Source: Deltaproteobacteria bacterium
Lineage (GTDB): Bacteria; Myxococcota_A; Polyangia; Polyangiales; JADJMO01
Reading direction: 5' to 3'
NCBI GenBank assembly: GCA_022843175.1
Contig: JALHOE010000053.1
Span: 1-43,235, forward strand
Length of the DNA stretch: 43,235 nt
Of the stretch, positions 2,240-15,511 are shown in pieces. The notes under the pieces were generated by a model. That model was not told where the DNA came from and did not search any database. It saw nothing but the letters and a program-made list of their open reading frames with translations. The translations under genes were made by a program, and so were the position numbers. Positions within the stretch are counted from its first letter, which is position 1. The number at the start of each line of letters is the position of its first letter.

Positions 2240-3481
2240 TCAACACTTCATCGTCAGGTCGATGAAGTGGCCGCCGGGGCCGCGCTTGAAACCCTTCGGC
2301 AGCTTCTCCGGCGGCTTGTCGCTGCGGACGGCGCGGGCGCCGAGGGCCTCGAGCAACTTGGGGAGGGGAATACCCTTGCGGAAATTCCCCTTGCCCGACT
2401 TCGTCGAGATCATCGCCGGGACCGACTTGCCGAGCATCTTCACGAGGTCCTCCGGCGTCGCGTTGTGACTCCCGTGGTGGCCGACCTTGAAGAAGCTGGC
2501 GGTCTCGAGGAGCTCCTTGCAGGCGTCGGCGTGGGCGCCGCCGGGAACGAGGCGCTTCCAGGTGCCCCACTCGGCGTCGCCGGGGAGCAGCAGGCGCGCC
2601 TTGCCGATGTCGAGCACCAGCAGCAGGCTCGTCGAGTTGATCATGTGGTCGACGAACTCCGCCGCGAACAGCGCATCGGCCTGACGCGCGAGGCTCTCGA
2701 TCCGCGCCTCGTCGGCGGCCGTGATGACGCGTTCGTCGTCGGGAGGCGCCCGCCACACCGGCGGAAACGGCGGCTCTGCGAGCCACGCGTTCTCGCCCCC
2801 GGCGTTGAGCGCGAGGCGCTTGAACGTCTGCGGATCGGGCGGCTCCTCCTCGACGATCTCGCTCGGATTGCGCGAGGGTCCGAGCACGTGGACGGTGACG
2901 CCGGGCAGCGCCTCGGGCTCGAACGTCTCGGGCACCTTGCGGGTGCGCGGCAGGTACCGTCGCTTCTTCGCGCGCCGGCGCAGCTTCTCGAGCGCGTCCT
3001 CGTTGCTCCAGGCGTTGAAGCCGAGCGCCGGGGCGCCCCGCTCGTCGATGCCGGCGTTCCACAACAGGAACTCGATCTCCTCGCGCTTCTCGGGCGCGAT
3101 CGGGAGCGACGGCACGGCGGCGGCGAGGTGCATCGTGAACGCGTGGTGCTTGCGCCACAGCTTGGTGGCCTCTGCGCTCTTCGGGTTGTCGACCCAGGGG
3201 AACCACACCTCGCCGAACTGCACCTCGTCCCACTGCGGGTCGTTGAACGCGAAGACGTGGTCGCGGTGGCGGTGGGTGGCGATGACCACGTCGATCCACT
3301 TCTTGCCGGTGAGGGCGACGACGTCGGCGATGACCTGCGCGACGAGCTCCTTGGCCGAGTAGTCGCCGGGGGCGTTGTTGTGGAAGCCGCAGTCGACGAG
3401 GATCGTTTTGTCGTCGGGGAGCGTGAGCAAGAAGCAGTCGCCGAAGCCGACGTTGTACATCCGGATACGCAGCTCGCTCAT
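2240..3481 (-). CDS. ComEC-like metallo-beta-lactamase-fold hydrolase
   Basis: A 413-residue protein without a signal peptide, beginning SELRIRMYNVGFGDCFLLTL, the typical opening of stand-alone ComEC/Rec2-type MBL proteins. The metal site is complete: THRHRDH (residues 69-75, the HxHxDH motif), Asp in LLLPGDAEW (about 302) and GHHGSHN (334-340), which is the ComEC-like version of the final His motif. In the family these are phosphodiesterase/nuclease-like enzymes of the cytoplasm; the substrate is not known here. An insertion of about 130 residues (150-280) separates the two halves of the fold. Its start codon overlaps the stop of the upstream metalloprotease gene (ATGA), which strongly suggests translational coupling. 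Confidence 0.88.
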   Translation of the reverse strand: MSELRIRMYNVGFGDCFLLTLPDDKTILVDCGFHNNAPGDYSAKELVAQVIADVVALTGKKWIDVVIATHRHRDHVFAFNDPQWDEVQFGEVWFPWVDNPKSAEATKLWRKHHAFTMHLAAAVPSLPIAPEKREEIEFLLWNAGIDERGAPALGFNAWSNEDALEKLRRRAKKRRYLPRTRKVPETFEPEALPGVTVHVLGPSRNPSEIVEEEPPDPQTFKRLALNAGGENAWLAEPPFPPVWRAPPDDERVITAADEARIESLARQADALFAAEFVDHMINSTSLLLVLDIGKARLLLPGDAEWGTWKRLVPGGAHADACKELLETASFFKVGHHGSHNATPEDLVKMLGKSVPAMISTKSGKGNFRKGIPLPKLLEALGARAVRSDKPPEKLPKGFKRGPGGHFIDLTMKC

Positions 3482-5340
3482 CGCCAACGCCTCCCGTCCA
3501 TCGCGCGCGACGAGAACGCCTCGCGGAGCGTGTCCCCCGGTCGGAGCTCGCGGAAGCCAGGGTTCCGATCGCGCTCGAACGCGCGCACCCACTCGCTGAC
3601 CCGCGCGCGGCGCTCCTTGGAGAAGGGCTTGCTGATCACGTAGCGGAGGCGCCCGTCGATGCCCGCGACGATGGTGGCGCCGGCGCTGAAGGCGAGGCCG
3701 CCGAGCTCGTCGTCGGGCGCGCCGGCTTGCACGAGGTGGGCGACCATCTCGACCAGGAGCTCGCCGCCGGCCGCGATGCGATGGACGGGGTGGAAGCCGG
3801 TGATCTGCACCGGTCTCTTCTCGTCGAGCCCGAGCTTCGCGCGCGTGCCCTCGGTCTTGGCCCACAGCCCGAGCTGCTTGCCGATGTCCGCCCAGTCCTC
3901 GTCCGGCTCGTCGATGTCGCCCTGTTTGTCGTCCTCCTCGCGCACCAGCTCGACGTGCTGCTGCTTGATGAAGTCCGCCGACGACTCGACCTTGGGGGGG
4001 GCCGGGCGGAGGAAGCGTTTCTCCTCCTTCTCGGCCATCGTGCTCCGCTTCATGTCGCGCATGCCGAGGTGGAGCAGCTCGCCGACGCACTTGGCGAGCA
4101 GCTCGTTGGGCGAGTCGGCGGGATCCCTCGGATCGAGCAGCAGCGACTCGACCGAGAGCGAACCGACGGCCTCGGGCCGGATGCCGTGGATACGGAACGC
4201 CTCGATCATCGAGGCGCGCAGGCGGATCTCGTCGGCCCGATGGAGCTCGTAGTCGGCGGTGACCATCGCGCGGAGAAAGTCGGAGAACGTCGGATCGACC
4301 GGCGGCAGGTAGTCGGTCGCGCGGATCACCATGGTGAGCACGAGCTGCGCGGTCTTCGCGCCCTCGCTGGCGAGGCGGGCGACGAGGTCGGGGTGGAGAT
4401 CGCCCTCGGGCAGACGCCCGCTTCCCCCGGTCGCGATGGCGATGAGATCTTTGGTGCGGCGCTCGAAGGCGCGAACGAAGCCCTCGTATACGGCGGCGAC
4501 GAGCACGCGCCCGAGTCGGTGCGGCTCGCGGGTCCGCGCGATCAGCGTGGGATCGGGCGCTTGCCCCACGGTGCGGAGCGCCTCGCCGAGACCGACCGCG
4601 GCGCCGAACTGCGCGCCGATCTCGAGCAGCGGGCTCCGCCGGAGGAGATCGCCGCGGGTGTCGCTCATCACGCGGCGCACGACCTCCGGGAACGTGAAGC
4701 GCTGGAGCATCGCGACGATGTCGGCGAACGCCTCGTGCAGCGCGGGCACGTGCGGGTTGGTGGGCTCGCGGAAGTGGCGGTGGAGGCGGTCGAGGACCGC
4801 GTGCGTGACCTCGTGCGCGACGATGTCGTGCGAGAGACAGGTGAAGACGAGCTGGCCGGGGAGGTTCGCGCCGGCGTCGTCCTCGTCGGCGCGGAAATAG
4901 CCGAACAGGACGCTGTTGGTCCCGGGATCGAAGAACGCGTTGCGCCCCTCGAACGCGTGGGGGAACAGCCGCAGGCGCTCGTTGCCCCAGAACCGCACCC
5001 GCCGGCCGAGCGCGCGGTCGAAGTTCTCGAGCACGCGCGCGGCGACGGCGTAGACCATCTGCTGGTGGAACTGCGGGTCGGCCTCCGCGGGCTCGACGCC
5101 GTCCTGCATCGCGATCTGCGCGTCGTCGAGCTGGATCGCGGTGTAATACGTGTTGTTGGCGCCGTCGTAGTCGATGACCTCGATGCGGTCGTCACGGAAG
5201 CCCTTCGGCCGCCACTGCATCTTCGAGTACGGCACGTCGATCGTCACGCGGTGATCTCCCGCGCGCGCGACCATCGGGTCGAAGGCGAAGATCTTGAGCG
5301 CACGCCGCTCGGGTCGAATGTCCTGCGGCGACTTGCGCAT
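3478..5340 (-). CDS. Gluzincin-type metalloprotease (HExxH...E) of unknown family
   Basis: A 620-residue protein with no signal peptide. The zinc motif HEVTH lies at 176-180 and the third-ligand motif HEAFAD at 202-207, the arrangement of thermolysin-like gluzincins (HExxH then NEAxSD about 24 residues later). The spacing here is about 27. The N-terminal 170 residues carry no motif I recognise. The segment from about 430 on is acidic and linker-like and leads to a C-terminal domain of about 120 residues. The lack of an export signal sets it apart from secreted thermolysins, so it may act in the cytoplasm. It is co-transcribed with the MBL gene (ATGA overlap) and lies 32 bp downstream of the PEBP gene. 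Confidence 0.8.
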   Translation of the reverse strand: MRKSPQDIRPERRALKIFAFDPMVARAGDHRVTIDVPYSKMQWRPKGFRDDRIEVIDYDGANNTYYTAIQLDDAQIAMQDGVEPAEADPQFHQQMVYAVAARVLENFDRALGRRVRFWGNERLRLFPHAFEGRNAFFDPGTNSVLFGYFRADEDDAGANLPGQLVFTCLSHDIVAHEVTHAVLDRLHRHFREPTNPHVPALHEAFADIVAMLQRFTFPEVVRRVMSDTRGDLLRRSPLLEIGAQFGAAVGLGEALRTVGQAPDPTLIARTREPHRLGRVLVAAVYEGFVRAFERRTKDLIAIATGGSGRLPEGDLHPDLVARLASEGAKTAQLVLTMVIRATDYLPPVDPTFSDFLRAMVTADYELHRADEIRLRASMIEAFRIHGIRPEAVGSLSVESLLLDPRDPADSPNELLAKCVGELLHLGMRDMKRSTMAEKEEKRFLRPAPPKVESSADFIKQQHVELVREEDDKQGDIDEPDEDWADIGKQLGLWAKTEGTRAKLGLDEKRPVQITGFHPVHRIAAGGELLVEMVAHLVQAGAPDDELGGLAFSAGATIVAGIDGRLRYVISKPFSKERRARVSEWVRAFERDRNPGFRELRPGDTLREAFSSRAMDGRRWR

Positions 5341-5920: not shown

Positions 5921-6313
5921 ATGCTGTCGCACGCACGCGTCCTCGTGGCCGAAGACGATCCCGACATGCTGCGTTCGGTGACGCAAGCATTGCGGAGCCT
6001 CGGTGCAGAGGTCGTGACGGCGACGGACGGCGCCGAGCTTTTGCAGAAACTCGCGGACGAGGGTCCGTTCACGGTCATCGTTACCGACGTGTCGATGCCA
6101 TGGATGAATGGTCTCCAGGCCATGCACGCGGTGCGCTACGCCGGGCTCGGCACTCCGGTCGTCGTGATGACCGCGCTGCAAGATTCGCGTCTGCCGCAGG
6201 ACGTGCAGGCCCTCGGTGCGCACGTCGAGCTGCTGCGTAAGCCCTTTGGTATCGCCGAGCTGGAAACCGCGATTCACGCAGTGGCTGGCCGGGCGAGCCA
6301 TGACGCCGCGTGA
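5921..6313 (+). CDS. Single-domain response regulator (CheY-like receiver)
   Basis: A 130-residue stand-alone receiver. Acidic pocket EDD (11-13), phospho-acceptor Asp 56 in VTDVSMP, the Thr switch in VVMTAL and the conserved Lys in RKPFG are all present. The ATG at 5921 (MLSHARVLVAEDD) fits the receiver boundary; an upstream ATG at 5864 would add 19 residues with no homology. No output domain is attached. The 3' end overlaps the next gene by 14 bp, so this receiver and the DisA_N-like protein are probably made together and may work together. Confidence 0.93.
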   Translation: MLSHARVLVAEDDPDMLRSVTQALRSLGAEVVTATDGAELLQKLADEGPFTVIVTDVSMPWMNGLQAMHAVRYAGLGTPVVVMTALQDSRLPQDVQALGAHVELLRKPFGIAELETAIHAVAGRASHDAA

Positions 6314-7529
6314 GCACCACCCCCGCTGGTCCATCGCGGCGGCCCCGCCGCCGTCGTCGCGCCCTCCGCTGTTTCCGCCCGCGCTGGTGCCGCTCCTCCG
6401 GGAGCGAATCCACGAGGGCCCGCTGATGAACATGCGCGACGACGTGCTCGATCAGCTGCTGACCGTGGTGTTCTTCGCCGGGCTCGAGACCAACGAGGGC
6501 GAGCGCCACCCGATCCGGGTGGTCTTCCTCGGCGAGCACGCGCCCGACATCATCCTCGCCGACGGCGAACGCGGCGACATCGGGACCTATCGCTGGAAGC
6601 AGATGCGCTTCGAGAGCCCGCGCCCGTTCACGGTCCCCGAGCTGGTGAAGCTGTCGTTGGTCACGACCGACGAGAAGATGTACTGCGCGGTGCACCTCTC
6701 GGGCGACACGCTCGCGATCGCCGGGTTGGCGCGCGAGGGGCTCCATCTCGGCGACGACGTGCACTTCAAGATCCTCACCTCGCGGCCCGGGCGATTGACC
6801 ATTCGCAGCGGTCGCGAGCGCGTCCTCGAATACGACCGCGGCGCGCTCGTGTCCTATGGAGAGCACGTCGTGTTCTCGGCGGGCCCCGTGCGCGACGCGC
6901 TACAGGCGTCGGCGGACGCGTGCGGCATCTCGTGCAACCACACCGAGTACCTCGACGCGGTCCGCGCCCTCATCCGCGAGATGGCCGGGCACGGCCGCGG
7001 CGGCATCCTCATCGTGCACAACGAGGACCATCCGTTCGTCCCCCCGACGGCGCCCTATCGCATGATGCTCGACGGCTCGGTCGCGTCGATGCTCGGGATC
7101 GCGAAGCTGATCGACCGCTCGGATCACGTCCCGGCGACGACCGAGCGGAGGAGGAGCTTCGGCAGCATGCTCCGCGGCGCCTTCCTCGCCGAGGCCGAGC
7201 GACGCATCGAGGAGATCGGAGCGATGACGGCGATCGACGGCGCGACGGTGCTCAACCGCGCTCTCTCGGTCGTCGCCTTCGGGCTCGTGCTGCCGGTGGT
7301 GCACGACGTCAAGGTCTACGGCGCGGCGAGCGACGACGCGTTCACCCTCTCGCCGGTCGACTTCGGCAGCCGCGGAACGCGCCACCGGGCCGCCGCGACC
7401 TACGCGTCGCAACACCCGGGCAGCGCGGTGTTCGTCGCGTCCGCCGACGGCGATGTCTCGTGCATGCTCCGCCCGGGCCCGCGACAGCGGACGATGATGT
7501 TCCGCCTCGGCCCGCGCGACGCGGTGTAG
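6300..7529 (+). CDS. DisA_N/diadenylate-cyclase-like protein with N-terminal sensor-like region
   Basis: A 409-residue soluble protein. The C-terminal 110 residues carry the hallmark motifs of diadenylate cyclase (DAC) domains: DGA at 313-315 and GTRHRAA at 359-365, followed by HPGSAVFVASADGDVSCM, in the order seen in DisA/CdaA. These enzymes make c-di-AMP from two ATP. Both catalytic motifs look intact. The N-terminal ~300 residues are unlike DisA or CdaA (no transmembrane helices, no DNA-binding domain), and include GGILIVHNED at 234-243. The layout resembles the DACNV-type sensor-plus-DAC proteins predicted from comparative genomics; that name is from memory. ATG 6300 overlaps the receiver gene's end; internal ATGs at 6426 and 6432 are alternatives. 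Confidence 0.82.
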   Translation: MTPREHHPRWSIAAAPPPSSRPPLFPPALVPLLRERIHEGPLMNMRDDVLDQLLTVVFFAGLETNEGERHPIRVVFLGEHAPDIILADGERGDIGTYRWKQMRFESPRPFTVPELVKLSLVTTDEKMYCAVHLSGDTLAIAGLAREGLHLGDDVHFKILTSRPGRLTIRSGRERVLEYDRGALVSYGEHVVFSAGPVRDALQASADACGISCNHTEYLDAVRALIREMAGHGRGGILIVHNEDHPFVPPTAPYRMMLDGSVASMLGIAKLIDRSDHVPATTERRRSFGSMLRGAFLAEAERRIEEIGAMTAIDGATVLNRALSVVAFGLVLPVVHDVKVYGAASDDAFTLSPVDFGSRGTRHRAAATYASQHPGSAVFVASADGDVSCMLRPGPRQRTMMFRLGPRDAV

Positions 7530-7542
7530 CCGCGCTTGAGGA

Positions 7543-8835
7543 ATGTCAGGTCCTCCCGCCCGCTCGCCGCTTAGCTTGCGCGCGGTGGACGAGCGCACCA
7601 ACCTCACCTGGCTCATCAAGCTCCGCTGGGGCGCGGTCGCGAGCGAGGCCGCGCTGATCGTCCTCGCCGACCGCTTCACGGTCGCGCTCCCGCTCGGACG
7701 GCTGTTCGCGGTGCTGGCGCTGGTGCTCGCGACCAACGTCGCGCTCGTCGTGTACGGCCGGGCACGCGAGGGGCTGCTCACGGCCGTCCTCGCGTTCGAC
7801 GTCCTGGCGCTCACCACGATGCTCGCCTTCACCGGCGGGCCGCTCAATCCGTTCAGCTCGCTCTACCTCGTCAACATCGCCCTCGCGGCGGTCGTGCTGT
7901 CGAGCCGCCACATCTGGGCGATCGTCGGGCTCTCGGCGGCCGGCTACGCCGCGCTGTTCGGCGAGAGCGTCTGGTCGGGTGACTTCTTCGGGCCCGACCA
8001 TGCGCGCCATATGCGCATCCACCTCCAGGGAATGTGGCTCGCGTTCATGGTCGCGGCCGTGTTCATCGGATACTTCGTGCACCGGGTCCAACGCGCGCTC
8101 GCTCTGCGCGAGGCCGAGCTGGCGCGGGTTCGGGCGCAGCAGGCGCGCACCGAGAAGCTGTCGGCGCTGGCGACCCTCGCGGCCGGCGCCGCGCACGAGC
8201 TCGCGACGCCGCTCTCCACGATCGCGGTCGTCGCGCGGGAGCTCTCGTCGCAGCTCTCCGGCGCCGCGCTCGAGGACGCGAGGCTCATCCGGCAAGAGGT
8301 CTCGCGCTGCCGCGCGGTGCTCGATCAGCTCGCCGCCGACGCGGGCGGGACGGTGGGGGACGAGCCGGCGCTGATCACGGTGCCCGCGCTCCTCGACCTC
8401 GCGCGCGCCGGGCTCGCGGACGTCCCGCGGATCGAGACGGACGTCGCGCCCGAGCTCTCGGTGCGGGCGCCGCCGCGGTCGCTCGCGCTCGCACTCCGCT
8501 CGGTCCTCAAGAACGCGCAGGACGCGTCGACGCCGGAGCGCCCGGTCGTCGTGCACGCGCACGAGAGCGAACGAAAGGTCACCATCGAGGTCGAGGACAC
8601 CGGCAGCGGCATGGACGCGAGCACGCTCGCGCGCGTCGGCGATCCGTTCTTCACCACCAAGGAGCCGGGACGGGGAATGGGGCTCGGGATGTTCCTCACG
8701 CGCTCGGTGCTCGAGCAGCTCGGGGGCGACGTGCGCATCGATTCGAGAGAGGGCCGCGGCACCACCGTGGTCCTCTCGCTGCCCTTCCCCATGGAGGAAC
8801 GCGATGGACGCCGAGTCGCTGCTGCTCGTCGATGA
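7543..8835 (+). CDS. regB: RegB/PrrB-type redox sensor histidine kinase
   Basis: A 430-residue membrane kinase. About six transmembrane helices occupy residues 22-180. They include GGPLNPF (98-104), which matches the GGxxNPF heptapeptide known as the quinone-sensing site of RegB. The H-box AAGAAHELATPLSTIA (phospho-His 218) is the RegB version, and a Cys at 256 in QEVSRCRAVL lies where RegB carries its redox-active Cys. The ATPase domain shows N (LKNAQDAS), G1 (DTGSGM), F (DPFFTTK) and G2 (GRGMGLGMF) boxes. In known systems RegB responds to the ubiquinone pool and thiol state. It overlaps its partner regulator by 32 bp. A weak GAGGA ribosome site precedes ATG 7543. Confidence 0.92.
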   Translation: MSGPPARSPLSLRAVDERTNLTWLIKLRWGAVASEAALIVLADRFTVALPLGRLFAVLALVLATNVALVVYGRAREGLLTAVLAFDVLALTTMLAFTGGPLNPFSSLYLVNIALAAVVLSSRHIWAIVGLSAAGYAALFGESVWSGDFFGPDHARHMRIHLQGMWLAFMVAAVFIGYFVHRVQRALALREAELARVRAQQARTEKLSALATLAAGAAHELATPLSTIAVVARELSSQLSGAALEDARLIRQEVSRCRAVLDQLAADAGGTVGDEPALITVPALLDLARAGLADVPRIETDVAPELSVRAPPRSLALALRSVLKNAQDASTPERPVVVHAHESERKVTIEVEDTGSGMDASTLARVGDPFFTTKEPGRGMGLGMFLTRSVLEQLGGDVRIDSREGRGTTVVLSLPFPMEERDGRRVAAARR

Positions 8836-9337
8836 CGACGCGGTGTTCCGCCCGCGGCTCGCGCGCGCGTTGCGCGAGCGGGGCTTCGAGGTGCGCGAGG
8901 CCGGCGGCTACGACGAGGCGCTCGCGGCCGCGCGCGAGGAGTCGCCGGAGCAGGCGCTCGTCGATCTGCGCATGCCGGGCCGCTCCGGGCTCGAGGTGGT
9001 GCGCGATCTGCGGGCGCTCGACGCCTCCACGCAAATCCTCGTGCTCACCGGCTATGGGAGCATCGCCACCGCCGTCGAAGCCATGCGGCTCGGCGCGCTC
9101 GGCTACCTCACCAAGCCCGCCGACGTCGAAGAGATCCTCGCCGCGTTCGAACGCGCGAAGAAGCCGCCGCTCACGAGCCTCCCGGAGCTCGAGGCGCCCT
9201 CGCTCGCGCGCGCCGAGTGGGAGCACATCCAGCGAGTGCTCGCCGACTCGACGGGCAACGTCTCGGAGGCCGCGCGCCGCCTCGGCCTCCACCGCCGCTC
9301 GCTGCAGCGAAAGCTCCAGCGGCACGCGCCGCGCTAA
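8804..9337 (+). CDS. regA: RegA/PrrA-type response regulator with Fis-like HTH
   Basis: A 177-residue regulator: receiver at 1-120 with DDD (10-12), phospho-Asp 54 in ALVDLRMPG, LTGYGSIATAVEAM (the strongly conserved RegA helix region) and the Lys of LTKPAD. A short proline-containing linker leads to a C-terminal Fis-type helix-turn-helix, EWEHIQRVLADSTGNVSEAA followed by RRLGLHRRSLQRKL, almost the RegA/ActR consensus. In proteobacteria RegA controls respiration, cytochrome and carbon/nitrogen genes. The gene overlaps regB by 32 bp and converges, with overlapping stop codons, on the redoxin/cytochrome operon, which is an obvious candidate target. Confidence 0.93.
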   Translation: MDAESLLLVDDDAVFRPRLARALRERGFEVREAGGYDEALAAAREESPEQALVDLRMPGRSGLEVVRDLRALDASTQILVLTGYGSIATAVEAMRLGALGYLTKPADVEEILAAFERAKKPPLTSLPELEAPSLARAEWEHIQRVLADSTGNVSEAARRLGLHRRSLQRKLQRHAPR

Positions 9338-9720
9338 CGATCGAGCGTGTGGCAGGCGAAGCAGTCCGACTTCTTGCCGAGCAGCCGCGATAGCTCGGGC
9401 GTGACCTGCTCCTTCATGAAGCGCTCGAGCTCGTCGTGGTGCATCGCCTCGCGCGGATCCTCCAGGAGCAGGTCCGGGTTCGGCATCTTATAGCGGCGCG
9501 CCTCGCCGTCGGCGCCGTGGCACGTCGCGCAGGTCGTCTTCGGGTAGCGGTGCTCGTCGAACCGCGCGAACACGCGCTCCATCGCGGGCGTGAACGTGGT
9601 CTGCATGTACGCGAGCCGCTCGTCGTACGACATCGCGTCCCACGACCGGGTGCGCGGGCTCCGCGCGGCCGTGCACGCGGCGAGCAGCATGGCGGCGGCT
9701 ACCACTTGCGCAGAACGCAT
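9334..9720 (-). CDS. Dihaem c-type cytochrome lipoprotein
   Basis: A 128-residue exported lipoprotein: hydrophobic start ending in lipobox LLAAC (Cys 16), then two haem-attachment motifs, CATCH (64-68) and CFACH (120-124) near the C-terminus. It should be anchored on the periplasmic face and carry electrons. Last gene of the minus-strand redox operon. Its start at 9720 lies inside the end of the redoxin gene (22-bp overlap), and its TAG stop overlaps the regA stop from the other strand. There is no catalytic domain, so it is probably an electron carrier for the redoxin or a partner enzyme. Confidence 0.88.
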   Translation of the reverse strand: MRSAQVVAAAMLLAACTAARSPRTRSWDAMSYDERLAYMQTTFTPAMERVFARFDEHRYPKTTCATCHGADGEARRYKMPNPDLLLEDPREAMHHDELERFMKEQVTPELSRLLGKKSDCFACHTLDR

Positions 9721-10256
9721 CCGAGCGCCTTTCCCTCCGGGCGGCGCGGCGCCTTTCCGGCCAGGAGATCGTCGAGGGCGTCCTTCACGTACGGCGTCGC
9801 GCCGTCGTGGAGCTTGCGCTTGTCGGAGTCGATGCCGCCGCGGTAGCGGACCCGGGCCTCGCGATCGAGCACCACGGTGAAGGTCGCGTACTCGGCCCCG
9901 AGCGCGTTGGCCAACCGCGCGCGCGCGTCGACGACCACCGGGAACGGGAGCTCGAGCTCGCTCTTCGCGGCCGCGGCGCGCGCGGGCGTCGCGCCGACCT
10001 CGGAGTCGACCGCGAGGAACTGCACGCCCTTCGGCGCATAGATGGCCGACAGGTCGCGCAGACGCGCGAGGTGGGCGTGCAGACACGGACAATCGGCGGC
10101 GAGAAAGACGAGGACCGTGAGCGGAGCGCGCGCGGCGATCTCCCGGAGAGGGCGCTCGCCGTCGGGCGCGAGCAGCACGACCTTCTCCGGCGTGGTGGGC
10201 GTGGGGGTGGAGCACGCGGCAAGGAGAAACGGCAAGAGGACGAGGAGTGCTCTCAT
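9699..10256 (-). CDS. Redoxin (AhpC/TSA-like) lipoprotein with CPC motif
   Basis: A 185-residue thioredoxin-fold protein. The N-terminus has lipobox LLAAC (Cys 15). The active site is DCPCLHAH with Cys 56 and 58, a CPC rather than a classical CxxC, and the protein ends in GCVLRKW, a Cys-containing tail seen in redoxin proteins of this type. Fold landmarks include VLVFLAADCPC, VQFLAVDSE and FPVVVDARARLANALGAEYA. Likely a periplasmic thiol peroxidase or disulfide-handling protein. ATGA overlap with the upstream barrel gene and 22-bp overlap with the cytochrome gene place it firmly in the operon; the pairing with a dihaem cytochrome suggests haem-linked electron flow. Confidence 0.85.
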   Translation of the reverse strand: MRALLVLLPFLLAACSTPTPTTPEKVVLLAPDGERPLREIAARAPLTVLVFLAADCPCLHAHLARLRDLSAIYAPKGVQFLAVDSEVGATPARAAAAKSELELPFPVVVDARARLANALGAEYATFTVVLDREARVRYRGGIDSDKRKLHDGATPYVKDALDDLLAGKAPRRPEGKALGCVLRKW

Positions 10257-11173
10257 AGGTACGACCAGATGACGCCGAGGGTGGCGCCGGTGGTGACGGG
10301 TTGATTCATGCCGAACGAGGAGCGCGGCGGGTTGGCGGAGACGCTCGCGAGCAGGCGCAGCTGATCGCCGAGCGGCACCATGCCGGCGACGCTCAACGAG
10401 ATCACCCGCCGCGCGCTCTCGGGCACGCGCGCGCCGTTCGCGGTCGCGTCGCCCTCGGCCATGTACGACGCGATCACGGCGGCGGTGGCACCGCTCTCGA
10501 ACGCGTGGCCCGCCGAGAGCAAGAGCGTGTACTGCGGCGCGAGGCGCATCTGCGTGGTGCCGACGGTCCGCGCCGTGCGGAGCGAGGCGAGACCGCTGAC
10601 GCCGAAGAACCACGCGCCGAACGCCTGCTCGAGGGCGACTCCGCCGTTGACCTGCACGGCGCCGATCCCAGTGGCGTCGGTCGCGAGCGGGTTCCTCGCG
10701 GCCTCGGCGGTGCGCCCGGTCGGCAGGGTGACACCCGCGAGGAGGCCGAGCCCGGGCACGAGCTGCGACTGCCCGGCGAGCAGCACGTCGTAGCGCGCGG
10801 CGAAGTTGATGTCGCCGAGCCCGCCGCCGGTGGACGAGCGCCCGGCGGCCCGACGGTGCGTCTCGACGAACGGGACGAGGGCCGCGACCTGCCCGCGCTT
10901 CAGCACTCGGATCGCGCCGAACACGTTCTGCTCGAAGTTGAGCTCGCGCGCGTGGCTCGGGGTGGGCACGTACTCGCCGCGCGCGTCGTGCGAGCCGAGG
11001 TGGTGCGCCGCGCGGAGCTGCAGGCCGACGAGCGCGTCGTCGTCGAGCACGAGGCGCGCGGGCGTGACGACGCCGGAGCCCGCGCAGCAGGCCTGCGCGT
11101 GCGCCGGCGCCGCTCGGAGGAGCAGCGCGAGCGCGAGGGCGCTAGCGAACGTCGACCGGGATGATGGCGACAT
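10253..11173 (-). CDS. Outer-membrane beta-barrel-like protein
   Basis: A 306-residue exported protein with a clear signal peptide (cleavage after APAHAQ), then ACCAGSG. The mature part alternates polar and hydrophobic residues, with Gly/aromatic-rich strand patterns (VALVPFVETHRR, GLGDINFAARYDVLL, GVTLPTGRTAEAARNP, GVIWSYL with an aromatic-near C-terminus), as in transporter-like outer-membrane barrels. The specific ligand is unknown. Its start lies 32 bp inside the end of the FixH-like gene and its stop overlaps the redoxin start (ATGA). Confidence 0.75.
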   Translation of the reverse strand: MSPSSRSTFASALALALLLRAAPAHAQACCAGSGVVTPARLVLDDDALVGLQLRAAHHLGSHDARGEYVPTPSHARELNFEQNVFGAIRVLKRGQVAALVPFVETHRRAAGRSSTGGGLGDINFAARYDVLLAGQSQLVPGLGLLAGVTLPTGRTAEAARNPLATDATGIGAVQVNGGVALEQAFGAWFFGVSGLASLRTARTVGTTQMRLAPQYTLLLSAGHAFESGATAAVIASYMAEGDATANGARVPESARRVISLSVAGMVPLGDQLRLLASVSANPPRSSFGMNQPVTTGATLGVIWSYL

Positions 11174-11555
11174 CGTTCGCTGCTCCGGTGATGTTCATCC
11201 GCAGATCCCACCGCCCGGCCATGAACAGATCGACGTCCTCGGCGAGGTACACGCCGCCCCCTTTCGCGGTGACGCGCGGGACCACCGGCGTGCCGTGCCC
11301 CATCGAGGGCATCTCCGGCGCGATGTCGAGGACGAGCCCGTCGACCGCGGCGGCCCTCGCGTCGGTGATCGTGATCCGCGCGGTGACGGTGCCGCGCGAC
11401 GGCGGCTGCTCGGGCGAAGTGAACACCGCCACGCGCAGCTTGCCGTCTCGGCTCGTCACCGTGGTGAGCGGCTCCTGCTTGAAGGTCGAGTCCACCGGCG
11501 CCGCAGAGCCGCCGCAGGCCATCGTCAGCGCCAGCGCCAGCAGCGAACGCGTCAT
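11142..11555 (-). CDS. YtkA/FixH-like lipoprotein
   Basis: A 137-residue lipoprotein (lipobox TMAC, Cys 14). The single domain has an immunoglobulin-like FixH/YtkA pattern: RGTVTARITITDARAAAVDG, EMPSMGHGTPVVPRVTAKGG, GVYLAEDVDLFMAGRWDLRM. The MPSMGHG segment brings Met and His together, a possible copper ligand set, and FixH-like proteins are tied to copper delivery or oxidase assembly in other bacteria. Acting in the periplasm is certain only as far as the lipobox goes. It is joined by an ATGA overlap to the upstream lipoprotein gene and overlaps the barrel gene. Confidence 0.82.
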   Translation of the reverse strand: MTRSLLALALTMACGGSAAPVDSTFKQEPLTTVTSRDGKLRVAVFTSPEQPPSRGTVTARITITDARAAAVDGLVLDIAPEMPSMGHGTPVVPRVTAKGGGVYLAEDVDLFMAGRWDLRMNITGAANDVAIIPVDVR

Positions 11556-12646: not shown

Positions 12647-15511
12647 TCACGGCTCCGGGCTACACGTCGCGCCCCGCACCGAAATCTCCTCCGCCCCGCT
12701 CCCGCGCAGCACCCACGCGTGCGCAAGATCGCGAGGCGTAACGAGCACCCTGGTCTTGGTGTCGTCGCCGGTGTGCTGTGCGCCGAGCGACTCGGTGCAC
12801 GCCGCGGTCGACCCCACGCGGAGCACGCGGTCGCTCCCGCGAAGGACGATCGGGGCGCTCTTCGGATCGTCGAGGTAGGCGACCTCGAGGACGCGGGTCG
12901 GATCCGCCGACGGCAGGCGGATGCCTCCCTTGATCTCGGCGCAGGCCGCCAACGGATCGTTCAGCGCGGCGAGCGAGGGGACGGTCAGGCCGTCGGGCGG
13001 ATCGTCGCCGAACGGGTCGAGCGGCTGAATGTACGTCGGCCCGACGATCGGCCCGTAGGCGATCGGAGACGGCGCGAGTCCGAGGAGCACCGGCCGGTTG
13101 TCGATCGCGCCCAACCTCGCGAGCGAGCCCATCGTCCACACCTTCGTGCGGAACGTCTTCCCGAAGTCGAGCGTCTCGGTGATGACGTCGTCGTAGCCGT
13201 ACCGATCCTTGAACAGGAAGCGATCGCCGAGCCGAACGGCGGACGACGGATGAAACAAGTTCCCCGGCATGGTGGGTTGCCCGAAGAGCTGCACCTTGCC
13301 GTCGTTCGACGCGAAGAAGAGCCCGCTCACGTCGTCGAGCTGAACGACGATGCCCCCCTCGACGATCTCGCGCATGAACGACGAGTACGTGTTGAAGTGC
13401 TCGGGGCGCTTCAGGCCCTTGGCGTCGGCGTGGTGCACCTTGCCGGTGCGGGCCGACCACCACGCCACGTGGACGTCCATTCGCTCGGCGGGGATCGGGT
13501 TGCCCTGCGTCCACTCGGTGGCGTCGAACGACACCCTGGCGGCCGTGATGCCGCCGTCCACGATCGAGTGACCGTCGAAGTGCGCCCGGCCCTTCGGAGC
13601 CTTCCACGGCGGAAGGAGCGCCAGCGTTTGCAGCTTGTTGTCGCGGGCGATGAGCGCGGTGAGCGCGTCGGTCTTGCTCCTTGTCGCGAGGGCGAAGCGC
13701 ACGCCGCCGTCGAGCGCGGCCGACACGTCACCCAGCGCCTGCGGATGCTTGCTCCACGCTCCGGTCGGCGTACACCGCAGCTTGCGCGTGACCGGCGTGG
13801 GCGGCGCCGCCTTCGGTGGGTCACCCGCCACGAGCGCCATCGCGTCTTTGGGCACCGCGCCGAGGTCGAGCTCCCAACCGAGCCGCGCGGTCCCGCTGTC
13901 CACGCAGCCCGCCGCGCTGCACTCGCGAACGATGAACCCGTGGGGCGCGGGGACGCGCGTCCAGTGCAGCCCGTCGTCGTTGGTCTCCCAAGTCGACTCC
14001 CCGCCGTAGGCCAGACCGCGCGGGCCCGCGAAAGCGAAGTGGGTCAGCAGCGGAACGTGTCGACGCGGCAGCTTCTCCCCCTTCGCAGAGAGGGTCTCGA
14101 CGATGGTCGGAGTGTCGGACAGGTCCCCCGGGGTCCCGAGGAACGTCATGAGCTCGCCGGACTGGGTGACGTGTCGCGCGGCGACGCCGCCGGAGGGGAG
14201 CGACGTCGTGAGCACCCGCAGGTCGCTGCCGTCGACCCTCACGCTGGTGACGGTGTTCGACTTGGGGGTGTCCGAGAAGATCAACACCCGCTTCTGCGAG
14301 GTATCCGCGACGACGGAGCTCAACAGCTCATCGCTCGGGATGGCGAGATCCTTCCACGCGCTCCCGACGCGCAGACGGATCGGTCCACACGCCTTTCGTT
14401 TGCACTGCGCCTGCGACACCATGGTGCCGTCCTCGGCCACTGCCAGGTAATCGGGGGTGTCGAGCACCGTGGTGAGGGCGGTCCCGTCCGTGGTGCGAAG
14501 GACGCGCGTGCTCGGCGGCTTGTAGCTGGTGACGATGAACAGGACGCCTTCACCGTCGCCGCGCACCGAGAGCCCCGAGCCCTCGGGGAACGCGGGCAGC
14601 GGACGGGCGACCGCGCCGGGCTCGAGCCCGGAGATCGTGACCGACCCCGCCTCGTCCTCGGTGAGGGTCACCATTCGATCGCCGGCCAGGAGGAGCGTCC
14701 GCCGCGGCGTCTTATCGAGGATTCCCATCCCGTCCTTCGGTACCGAGCGCGCGGGGACCGGTTTGCCACCGAGCTCGAACGCCTCTTTCGGCCGATCGAA
14801 GCGGAGCGCGCTCTTCGCGATTCCGACGAGCCACACGTCGCCCGCGGCGTCGTTGTCGATCGCGGCGGCGCCCATTCCGCCGCTCGCGACCCTGGACCAG
14901 GTCGCGCCGCCATCGCTCGAGCGCATCACCCGCTGCGGGTGGAAGAGCGCGAACAAATCGCCGTCGCGATGGGGCGCGACGCCCACTGCGCGGGACACGG
15001 GCGAGAGGTTGAGCGCGACCGGCCGAAAGGTCCGCCCCTTGTCGATGGAGCGCGAGAGCCGCCCGGCCGCGTCGACGACCAGAATCCCGTTTCCGACAGC
15101 GGCCTTACTCTCCGGATCGAAGGTTGGCCCGGGGCGTGACTCGACGAACGCGCCGAGCGGCGAGTTGGCGATCCAGGTGTCGCCGTGGTGTCCCACGAAC
15201 ACGTAGCGCTCCTCGTCGCGGAGGAGCCCGAGGAGCCTGCTGCCGGCGAGGGTCTTCGCCGTTTCGATCGAGCCGTCCGCGCGGAAGAGCCACCGCTTGC
15301 CGTCGTACCCCGCCTGCAACATCCCGATGCCGGAGAGCTCGGTCTGCAGGCTCGGCGAGTAGAAATCGAGCCGCGGGTCGATCAGCCAGCGCACCGGCGC
15401 GCGTGGGCCGGGCGCGGGTGGCGCCACGGTGACCGGCTTCGGCGCCTCCGGCGTGACGACCGCGGCCGGCGCGCACGACAGCAGCACAAGGAGCAGCAGC
15501 GAAAACCGCAT
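12647..15511 (-). CDS. Large BNR/sortilin-type beta-propeller lipoprotein
   Basis: A 954-residue lipoprotein (lipobox LLSC, Cys 13) followed by a Pro/Ala/Val linker. The body is a repeated beta-propeller with BNR Asp-box motifs: SIDKGRTFRPV, SSDGGATWSRV, TNDDGLHWTRV and TLDFGKTFRTKVW. Asp-box propellers bind or process glycans or act as scaffolds; no sialidase catalytic set is visible, so an enzymatic role is not claimed. It is divergent from the LRR gene at 15613 (about 100 bp between them). A 33-codon open stretch after the stop codon is noted separately. Confidence 0.85.
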   Translation of the reverse strand: MRFSLLLLVLLSCAPAAVVTPEAPKPVTVAPPAPGPRAPVRWLIDPRLDFYSPSLQTELSGIGMLQAGYDGKRWLFRADGSIETAKTLAGSRLLGLLRDEERYVFVGHHGDTWIANSPLGAFVESRPGPTFDPESKAAVGNGILVVDAAGRLSRSIDKGRTFRPVALNLSPVSRAVGVAPHRDGDLFALFHPQRVMRSSDGGATWSRVASGGMGAAAIDNDAAGDVWLVGIAKSALRFDRPKEAFELGGKPVPARSVPKDGMGILDKTPRRTLLLAGDRMVTLTEDEAGSVTISGLEPGAVARPLPAFPEGSGLSVRGDGEGVLFIVTSYKPPSTRVLRTTDGTALTTVLDTPDYLAVAEDGTMVSQAQCKRKACGPIRLRVGSAWKDLAIPSDELLSSVVADTSQKRVLIFSDTPKSNTVTSVRVDGSDLRVLTTSLPSGGVAARHVTQSGELMTFLGTPGDLSDTPTIVETLSAKGEKLPRRHVPLLTHFAFAGPRGLAYGGESTWETNDDGLHWTRVPAPHGFIVRECSAAGCVDSGTARLGWELDLGAVPKDAMALVAGDPPKAAPPTPVTRKLRCTPTGAWSKHPQALGDVSAALDGGVRFALATRSKTDALTALIARDNKLQTLALLPPWKAPKGRAHFDGHSIVDGGITAARVSFDATEWTQGNPIPAERMDVHVAWWSARTGKVHHADAKGLKRPEHFNTYSSFMREIVEGGIVVQLDDVSGLFFASNDGKVQLFGQPTMPGNLFHPSSAVRLGDRFLFKDRYGYDDVITETLDFGKTFRTKVWTMGSLARLGAIDNRPVLLGLAPSPIAYGPIVGPTYIQPLDPFGDDPPDGLTVPSLAALNDPLAACAEIKGGIRLPSADPTRVLEVAYLDDPKSAPIVLRGSDRVLRVGSTAACTESLGAQHTGDDTKTRVLVTPRDLAHAWVLRGSGAEEISVRGATCSPEP

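What the first reader, a model, noticed from the sequence alone, without database searches (positions are those of the whole stretch)
5921..7529. Receiver domain translationally linked to an unusual DisA_N-type c-di-AMP cyclase-like protein
The DAC motifs DGA and GTRHRAA are intact at the C-terminus of a soluble protein whose 300-residue N-terminal region is unlike DisA, CdaA or CdaS. A stand-alone CheY-like receiver overlaps it by 14 bp, and a RegB/RegA redox pair starts 14 bp later in the same direction. This suggests a phosphorelay- or redox-gated nucleotide messenger unit. Motif presence is seen; c-di-AMP synthesis by this family is established; coupling to the receiver and RegBA is inference.
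Basis: partly seen in the sequence, partly recalled or inferred. Interest (0 to 1): 0.75.

Follow-up and report, generated by a model that had tools for sequence, protein, structure and literature searches.

The report
Receiver-paired DACNV-type c-di-AMP cyclase
A myxobacterium-like genome carries a probable c-di-AMP signal-making enzyme whose gene stays joined to one particular stand-alone phosphorylation-switch gene across related bacteria, even when the two genes swap order, which suggests that a phosphorelay controls the enzyme.

Summary
Window 6300-7529 (+) encodes a 409-aa soluble protein with DGA (aa 313-315) and GTRHRAA (359-365). It just passes the Pfam DAC cut-off (28 vs 27 bits), and an AlphaFold2 model (pLDDT 86) has a DAC domain at aa ~187-405 (Z up to 12.5 to known cyclases). 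The N-terminus is Pfam's DACNV 'probable sensor', so the architecture is known. The receiver (5921-6313) overlaps it by 14 bp.

New here: the pairing is conserved. In five of six intact members of a small clade in the same order, the orthologous stand-alone receiver sits beside the cyclase gene on the same strand: upstream in two, downstream in three. Other flanking genes are mostly unrelated; the linked receivers form one clade. The sixth member lacks the receiver. RegB orthologues in relatives lie far from the pair, so the redox link is not supported.

A lead: the DACNV region's own model matches only DAC domains among the solved structures compared (Z to 7.7), without sequence support; it may be a degenerate DAC.

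Best reading: a phospho-receiver gates a second, signal-specific diadenylate cyclase. Enzyme activity, contact and direction of control are untested.

The parts
5921..6313 (+). Stand-alone CheY-like receiver, 130 aa, phosphorylation residues intact (D12 D13, Asp in TDVSMP, T in VVMT, K in RKPF)
   Evidence: Pfam PF00072 74.7 bits; alignment of orthologues
6300..6313 (+). 14-bp overlap of receiver stop and cyclase start (ATGACGCCGCGTGA)
   Evidence: sequence
6300..7529 (+). DACNV-DAC probable diadenylate cyclase, 409 aa, soluble
6438..6731 (+). DACNV probable sensor domain (aa 47-144)
   Evidence: Pfam PF21751 43.8 bits, cut-off 27
6420..6851 (+). Region (aa ~41-184) whose own model resembles a DAC domain without DGA or RHR (lead)
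   Evidence: no sequence-level support
6858..7514 (+). Catalytic-type DAC fold (aa ~187-405)
   Evidence: VIA-align Z 12.5, rmsd 2.7, 139 aligned to 2fb5
7236..7244 (+). DGA motif (aa 313-315)
   Evidence: sequence; D313 and A315 invariant in 48 relatives
7374..7388 (+). GTRHR motif (aa 359-363)
   Evidence: sequence; G359 R361 H362 invariant in 48 relatives
7543..8835 (+). RegB/ActS/PrrB-like histidine kinase with GGPLNPF and a single Cys (C256); neighbour, not a conserved part of the unit
8804..9337 (+). RegA/ActR/PrrA-like response regulator; neighbour, not a conserved part of the unit

Best explanation
The two overlapping genes encode a dedicated pair: a single-domain receiver and a soluble DACNV-DAC cyclase. 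A histidine kinase phosphorylates the receiver, which then acts on the cyclase by direct protein contact, most simply through the N-terminal half, shifting DAC domains into or out of the head-to-head pair needed to make c-di-AMP. It would be a second, signal-specific source of c-di-AMP beside the housekeeping CdaA of the same genome. Shown here: both genes, the motifs, the predicted DAC fold, intact phosphorylation residues, and conserved pairing of orthologues with swapped gene order. Inferred: cyclase activity, direct contact, direction of control, identity of the kinase.
For: DAC fold and motifs. Receiver with the full set of phosphorylation residues in all five pairs. Orthologous receiver adjacent on the same strand in window, G057, G182, G153, G152, upstream in two and downstream in three; it is the best match of the window receiver in each genome, 146/125/110/95 bits against 75 or less for the next. 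Linked receivers form one clade and linked cyclases one clade, SH-aLRT 99 each. Other flanks not shared except between the sister pair G152/G153 and generic kinase similarities. A remnant in G001 also joins receiver and cyclase sequence. Separate folP-CdaA-CdaR locus in the genome.
Against: No biochemistry. The clade is small (6 intact proteins, one of them, G001:C50, without a receiver within 6 kb). T360 and R363 vary in some members, so activity may not be general. Physical contact between receiver and cyclase was not tested. Gene adjacency could reflect co-expression only.
Confidence: 0.6

Rival explanations
1. RegBA gates the unit: redox-sensing RegB phosphorylates the stand-alone receiver, or RegA controls the operon, making c-di-AMP output redox-dependent in this organism.
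For: RegB-like ORF begins 13 bp after the cyclase on the same strand; RegB signature GGPLNPF and a single Cys present; NCBIfam ActS/PrrB/RegB 223 bits and ActR/PrrA 182 bits, both below the equivalog cut-offs.
Against: RegB orthologues in G001 (77% identity), G003, G057, G152 and G182 are located away from the receiver/cyclase pair; no relative has RegBA beside the pair. G057 has a different kinase (PAS-GAF) next to its receiver.
Confidence: 0.12
2. The receiver and cyclase only share an operon; the receiver works in another pathway (for example as a phosphate sink or shuttle) and has no contact with the cyclase.
For: Adjacency alone does not show contact; stand-alone receivers often act in relays (established knowledge of two-component systems). 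One member lacks the receiver.
Against: Gene order is reversed between sub-clades while near-overlap persists and other neighbours differ, which suits a protein pair more than a chance operon.
Confidence: 0.2
3. The cyclase-like protein is not an active c-di-AMP synthase but a nucleotide-binding regulator or an enzyme with another product, read out by the receiver pathway.
For: DAC score is only just over the cut-off; some clade members have GVRHR, GARHQ or GARHH instead of GTRHR; the SxDG motif replaces the Glu-containing motif of CdaA.
Against: DGA and RHR, the motifs needed in DisA (PMC3328451), are intact in the window protein and most relatives; DAC fold predicted with confidence.
Confidence: 0.2
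4. Adjacency is an accident of shared ancestry in a few related genomes.
For: Few members, all in one order.
Against: Swapped order with kept adjacency in at least four different gene contexts; rough density of stand-alone receivers in the genome is low (about 20 of 150 scored receiver domains lie in ORFs of 170 aa or less).
Confidence: 0.05

Closest known systems
DACNV-DAC proteins (Pfam PF21751 + PF02457)
   Same: Both Pfam domains above cut-off in the same order, soluble, collinear with 47 relatives
   Different: A divergent clade with its own stand-alone receiver gene; most other DACNV-DACs in the order have no receiver beside them
DisA (DNA-scanning diadenylate cyclase)
   Same: DAC fold, DGA and RHR motifs
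   Different: DAC is C-terminal here and no DisA linker or HhH region was found
CdaA/DacA with CdaR
   Same: DAC fold and motifs
   Different: No CdaA_N membrane domain; a true CdaA with CdaR is present elsewhere in the genome
REC-GGDEF response regulators (c-di-GMP), by analogy
   Same: A receiver proposed to switch a cyclic-dinucleotide synthase (inference)
   Different: Separate polypeptides, DAC chemistry, no biochemical proof; comparison rests on general knowledge

Membership tests
DAC (diadenylate cyclase domain, PF02457) | Pfam score above curated cut-off | tested here: met
   28.0 bits against 27
DAC (diadenylate cyclase domain, PF02457) | DGA and (G/T)RHR motifs | tested here: met
   aa 313-315 and 359-363
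DAC (diadenylate cyclase domain, PF02457) | DAC fold | tested here: met
   predicted model, Z 12.5 rmsd 2.7 139 aligned to 2fb5; Z 12.3 to DisA 9y4s
DAC (diadenylate cyclase domain, PF02457) | synthesis of c-di-AMP from ATP | not testable with these tools
   needs an enzyme assay
DACNV-DAC architecture | DACNV domain N-terminal to DAC | tested here: met
   43.8 bits against 27, aa 47-144
DisA | N-terminal DAC followed by linker and HhH domain | tested here: not met
   DAC is C-terminal; no such Pfam match
CdaA | N-terminal CdaA_N transmembrane domain | tested here: not met
   no Pfam match in the window protein; the genome's CdaA does have it
CdaS | short helical N-terminus before DAC | tested here: inconclusive
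   best single fold match is 2fb5, called CdaS in PMC8573169, tied with other DACs; the N-terminus here is DACNV
Receiver (CheY-like, PF00072) | receiver domain with acidic pair, phospho-acceptor Asp, Thr/Ser and Lys | tested here: met
   74.7 bits; residues kept in all five orthologues
RegB/RegA equivalogs | NCBIfam equivalog cut-off | tested here: not met
   223 bits against 350 and 182 against 250, though best-scoring families in each case
DACNV as a degenerate DAC domain | DAC-like fold | tested here: inconclusive
   only DAC chains among the rows shown, Z 6.1-7.7; Foldseek E 0.03
DACNV as a degenerate DAC domain | sequence-profile similarity to DAC | tested here: not met
   hhalign probability 0.6% and 0.2%

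The most novel reading that the evidence does not exclude
The DACNV 'sensor' is itself a decayed DAC domain, so DACNV-DAC proteins are tandem DACs in which a pseudo-DAC (no DGA, no RHR) lies beside a catalytic DAC. In this clade a phosphorylated stand-alone receiver decides whether the pseudo-domain caps the catalytic face or releases it for head-to-head pairing: a phosphorelay-gated c-di-AMP synthase with a built-in pseudo-partner.
Probability: 0.25. Interest if true: 0.75.

Novelty: new variant of a known kind. Interest (0 to 1): 0.52.

Why it matters
Input signals of most diadenylate cyclases are unknown. A receiver conserved beside the cyclase gives a concrete, testable route from a histidine kinase to c-di-AMP, comparable to what REC-GGDEF proteins do for c-di-GMP. 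No such link was found in the held literature, where c-di-AMP acts on a two-component system (KdpD) rather than the reverse. If the DACNV domain is a decayed DAC, that would also give a first structural idea for a sensor domain that has had only a name.

Tried and rejected
A single-protein query of genome contigs found nothing; the alignment query found the Polyangiaceae MAGs and distant Bacteroidota relatives at 26%. No match in plasmids or phages. A phylum-wide draw of 379 genomes gave no clade member beyond the own genome and G057 at E <= 1e-30. No c-di-AMP riboswitch in the genome. DHHA1 proteins exist but are too general to name a c-di-AMP phosphodiesterase. hhalign between DACNV and either DAC alignment gave no signal; Foldseek alone on the N-terminal model is not significant. 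Chemosensory genes (MCP, CheW, HEAT, CheR, CheB) near DACNV-DACs in two other genera were considered as the same theme, but the link is inconsistent among near-identical loci, so it is not counted. Two papers on DAC architectures and nucleotide systems that I recall are not held, so earlier notice of receiver pairing, or of the nature of DACNV, cannot be excluded. The own genome was not available as a file, so the density of stand-alone receivers is a rough count.

Full report
OBSERVATION. The receiver is 5921-6313 (+), 130 aa; the cyclase-like ORF is 6300-7529 (+), 409 aa from ATG 6300, so they overlap by 14 bp. Residues invariant in the clade begin at P26, which supports the 6300 start. Pfam gives DACNV (43.8 bits, aa 47-144) and DAC (28.0 bits, aa 301-389; cut-off 27), and a plain response-regulator receiver (74.7 bits). 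DGA is aa 313-315, GTRHR aa 359-363.

STRUCTURE. AlphaFold2 on 48 collinear sequences gives pLDDT 85.7, pTM 0.78. Residues ~187-405 have the DAC fold: Z 12.5, rmsd 2.7, 139 aligned to 2fb5 (called CdaS of B. cereus in PMC8573169), Z 12.3 to DisA 9y4s. The DAC domain thus starts well before aa 300, with an insertion of about 70 residues between its first strand and DGA. E66, D313, A315, G328, G359, R361, H362, S381 and D383 are invariant among the 48. In M. tuberculosis DisA the RHR motif is essential (PMC3328451), and c-di-AMP formation needs two DAC domains head to head (PMC8573169).

THE N-TERMINAL REGION. Folded alone (aa 22-194, 43 sequences, pLDDT 86.9), it matches DAC domains: among 990 chains aligned, 57 reach Z 2 or more, and every row shown (one per entry, Z 6.1 to 7.7) is a diadenylate cyclase, the best 7dfx_B (Z 7.7, rmsd 3.9, 121 aligned). 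Foldseek's first two hits are CdaM at E 0.03-0.06. Z below 8 may mean only a common arrangement, and profile comparison finds no sequence signal. I treat 'DACNV is a degenerate DAC' as a lead at about even odds. What speaks for it beyond the score is that the nearest fold is the very domain that follows in the same protein.

PAIRING. Among genomes of the same order the five nearest full-length relatives are 39-54% identical. Four of them (G057, G182, G153, G152), like the window, have a stand-alone receiver gene on the same strand beside the cyclase gene: upstream in window and G057, downstream in G182, G153 and G152. The junctions are a 14-bp overlap (window, G182), an ATGA overlap (G153), a 4-nt gap from the nearest ATG (G057), and in G152 either a gap of about 70 nt or an overlap, depending on the start codon. 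In each genome this receiver is the best match of the window's receiver by a wide margin. The linked receivers form one clade and the linked cyclases one clade (SH-aLRT 99 each); G152 and G153 group in both trees, window and G057 group in the cyclase tree and lie together, unresolved, at the base of the receiver clade. Apart from the sister pair G152/G153, no other neighbouring gene is shared except generic protein-kinase, histidine-kinase and receiver similarities. The fifth relative, G001:C50, lacks a receiver within 6 kb, but G001 also carries at C83 a remnant in which receiver codons 1-40 run into cyclase codons ~302-409 in another frame. Adjacency kept through a change of gene order is stronger evidence for coupling than shared order alone. 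As a rough yardstick, about 20 of 150 scored receiver domains in this genome lie in ORFs of 170 aa or less, so a random gene would rarely touch one.

REGBA. The kinase and regulator downstream are RegB/RegA-like. RegB orthologues in G001 (77% identity), G003, G057, G152 and G182 lie elsewhere, and no relative has RegBA at the pair. Co-transcription in this genome is likely from the 13-bp gap (inference), but the redox link is a local possibility only. G057 has a PAS-GAF kinase divergently next to its receiver, so the kinase partner is open.

HOW IT MOST LIKELY WORKS. Kinase to receiver to DACNV-DAC to c-di-AMP, by contact between the receiver and the cyclase that alters DAC pairing. Activity, contact and sign are inferred. 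The same genome has a canonical folP-cdaA-cdaR locus, so the window protein would be a conditional, additional source. Within the clade T360 and R363 are not always kept (GVRHR in G057, GARHQ in G182, GARHH in G001:C50), so activity may differ among members.

KNOWN OR NEW. The architecture is known to Pfam. The dedicated receiver and its conserved pairing were not found in the held literature, though two papers that I recall on DAC architectures are not held. I call it a new variant of a known kind.

Noticed in passing
L041:7740-8175 (G001:C83): Remnant in a genome of the same genus: receiver codons 1-40 run directly into cyclase codons ~302-409 in a different frame, as after a large internal deletion.
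   Followed up: partly
L030:7351-10383 (G000:C24): Canonical folP-CdaA-CdaR locus in the same genome; its DAC motifs read LHDGS and GSRHR instead of DGA and GTRHR.
   Followed up: partly
L071, L072, L074, L082 and L104, L079: In two other genera a DACNV-DAC gene lies beside a REC-CheB gene; in L071 and L104 this is part of an MCP/HEAT-repeat/CheW/CheR-type chemosensory cluster. Not consistent among near-identical loci (L077, L078 lack it).
   Followed up: partly
L021:6804-10287: A GAF-PAS hybrid histidine kinase with C-terminal receiver sits directly upstream of another DACNV-DAC gene on the same strand.
   Followed up: no
window 9337-11555 (-): Cytochrome c, redoxin/AhpC-TSA, Phenol_MetA_deg and YtkA-like genes face RegBA; possible RegA targets (inference).
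   Followed up: no
window 3481-5340 (-): 620-aa protein with an HEVTH zinc-protease-like motif and no Pfam match at 0.001.
   Followed up: no
window 12650-15511 (-): 954-aa ORF with no Pfam match at 0.001.
   Followed up: no
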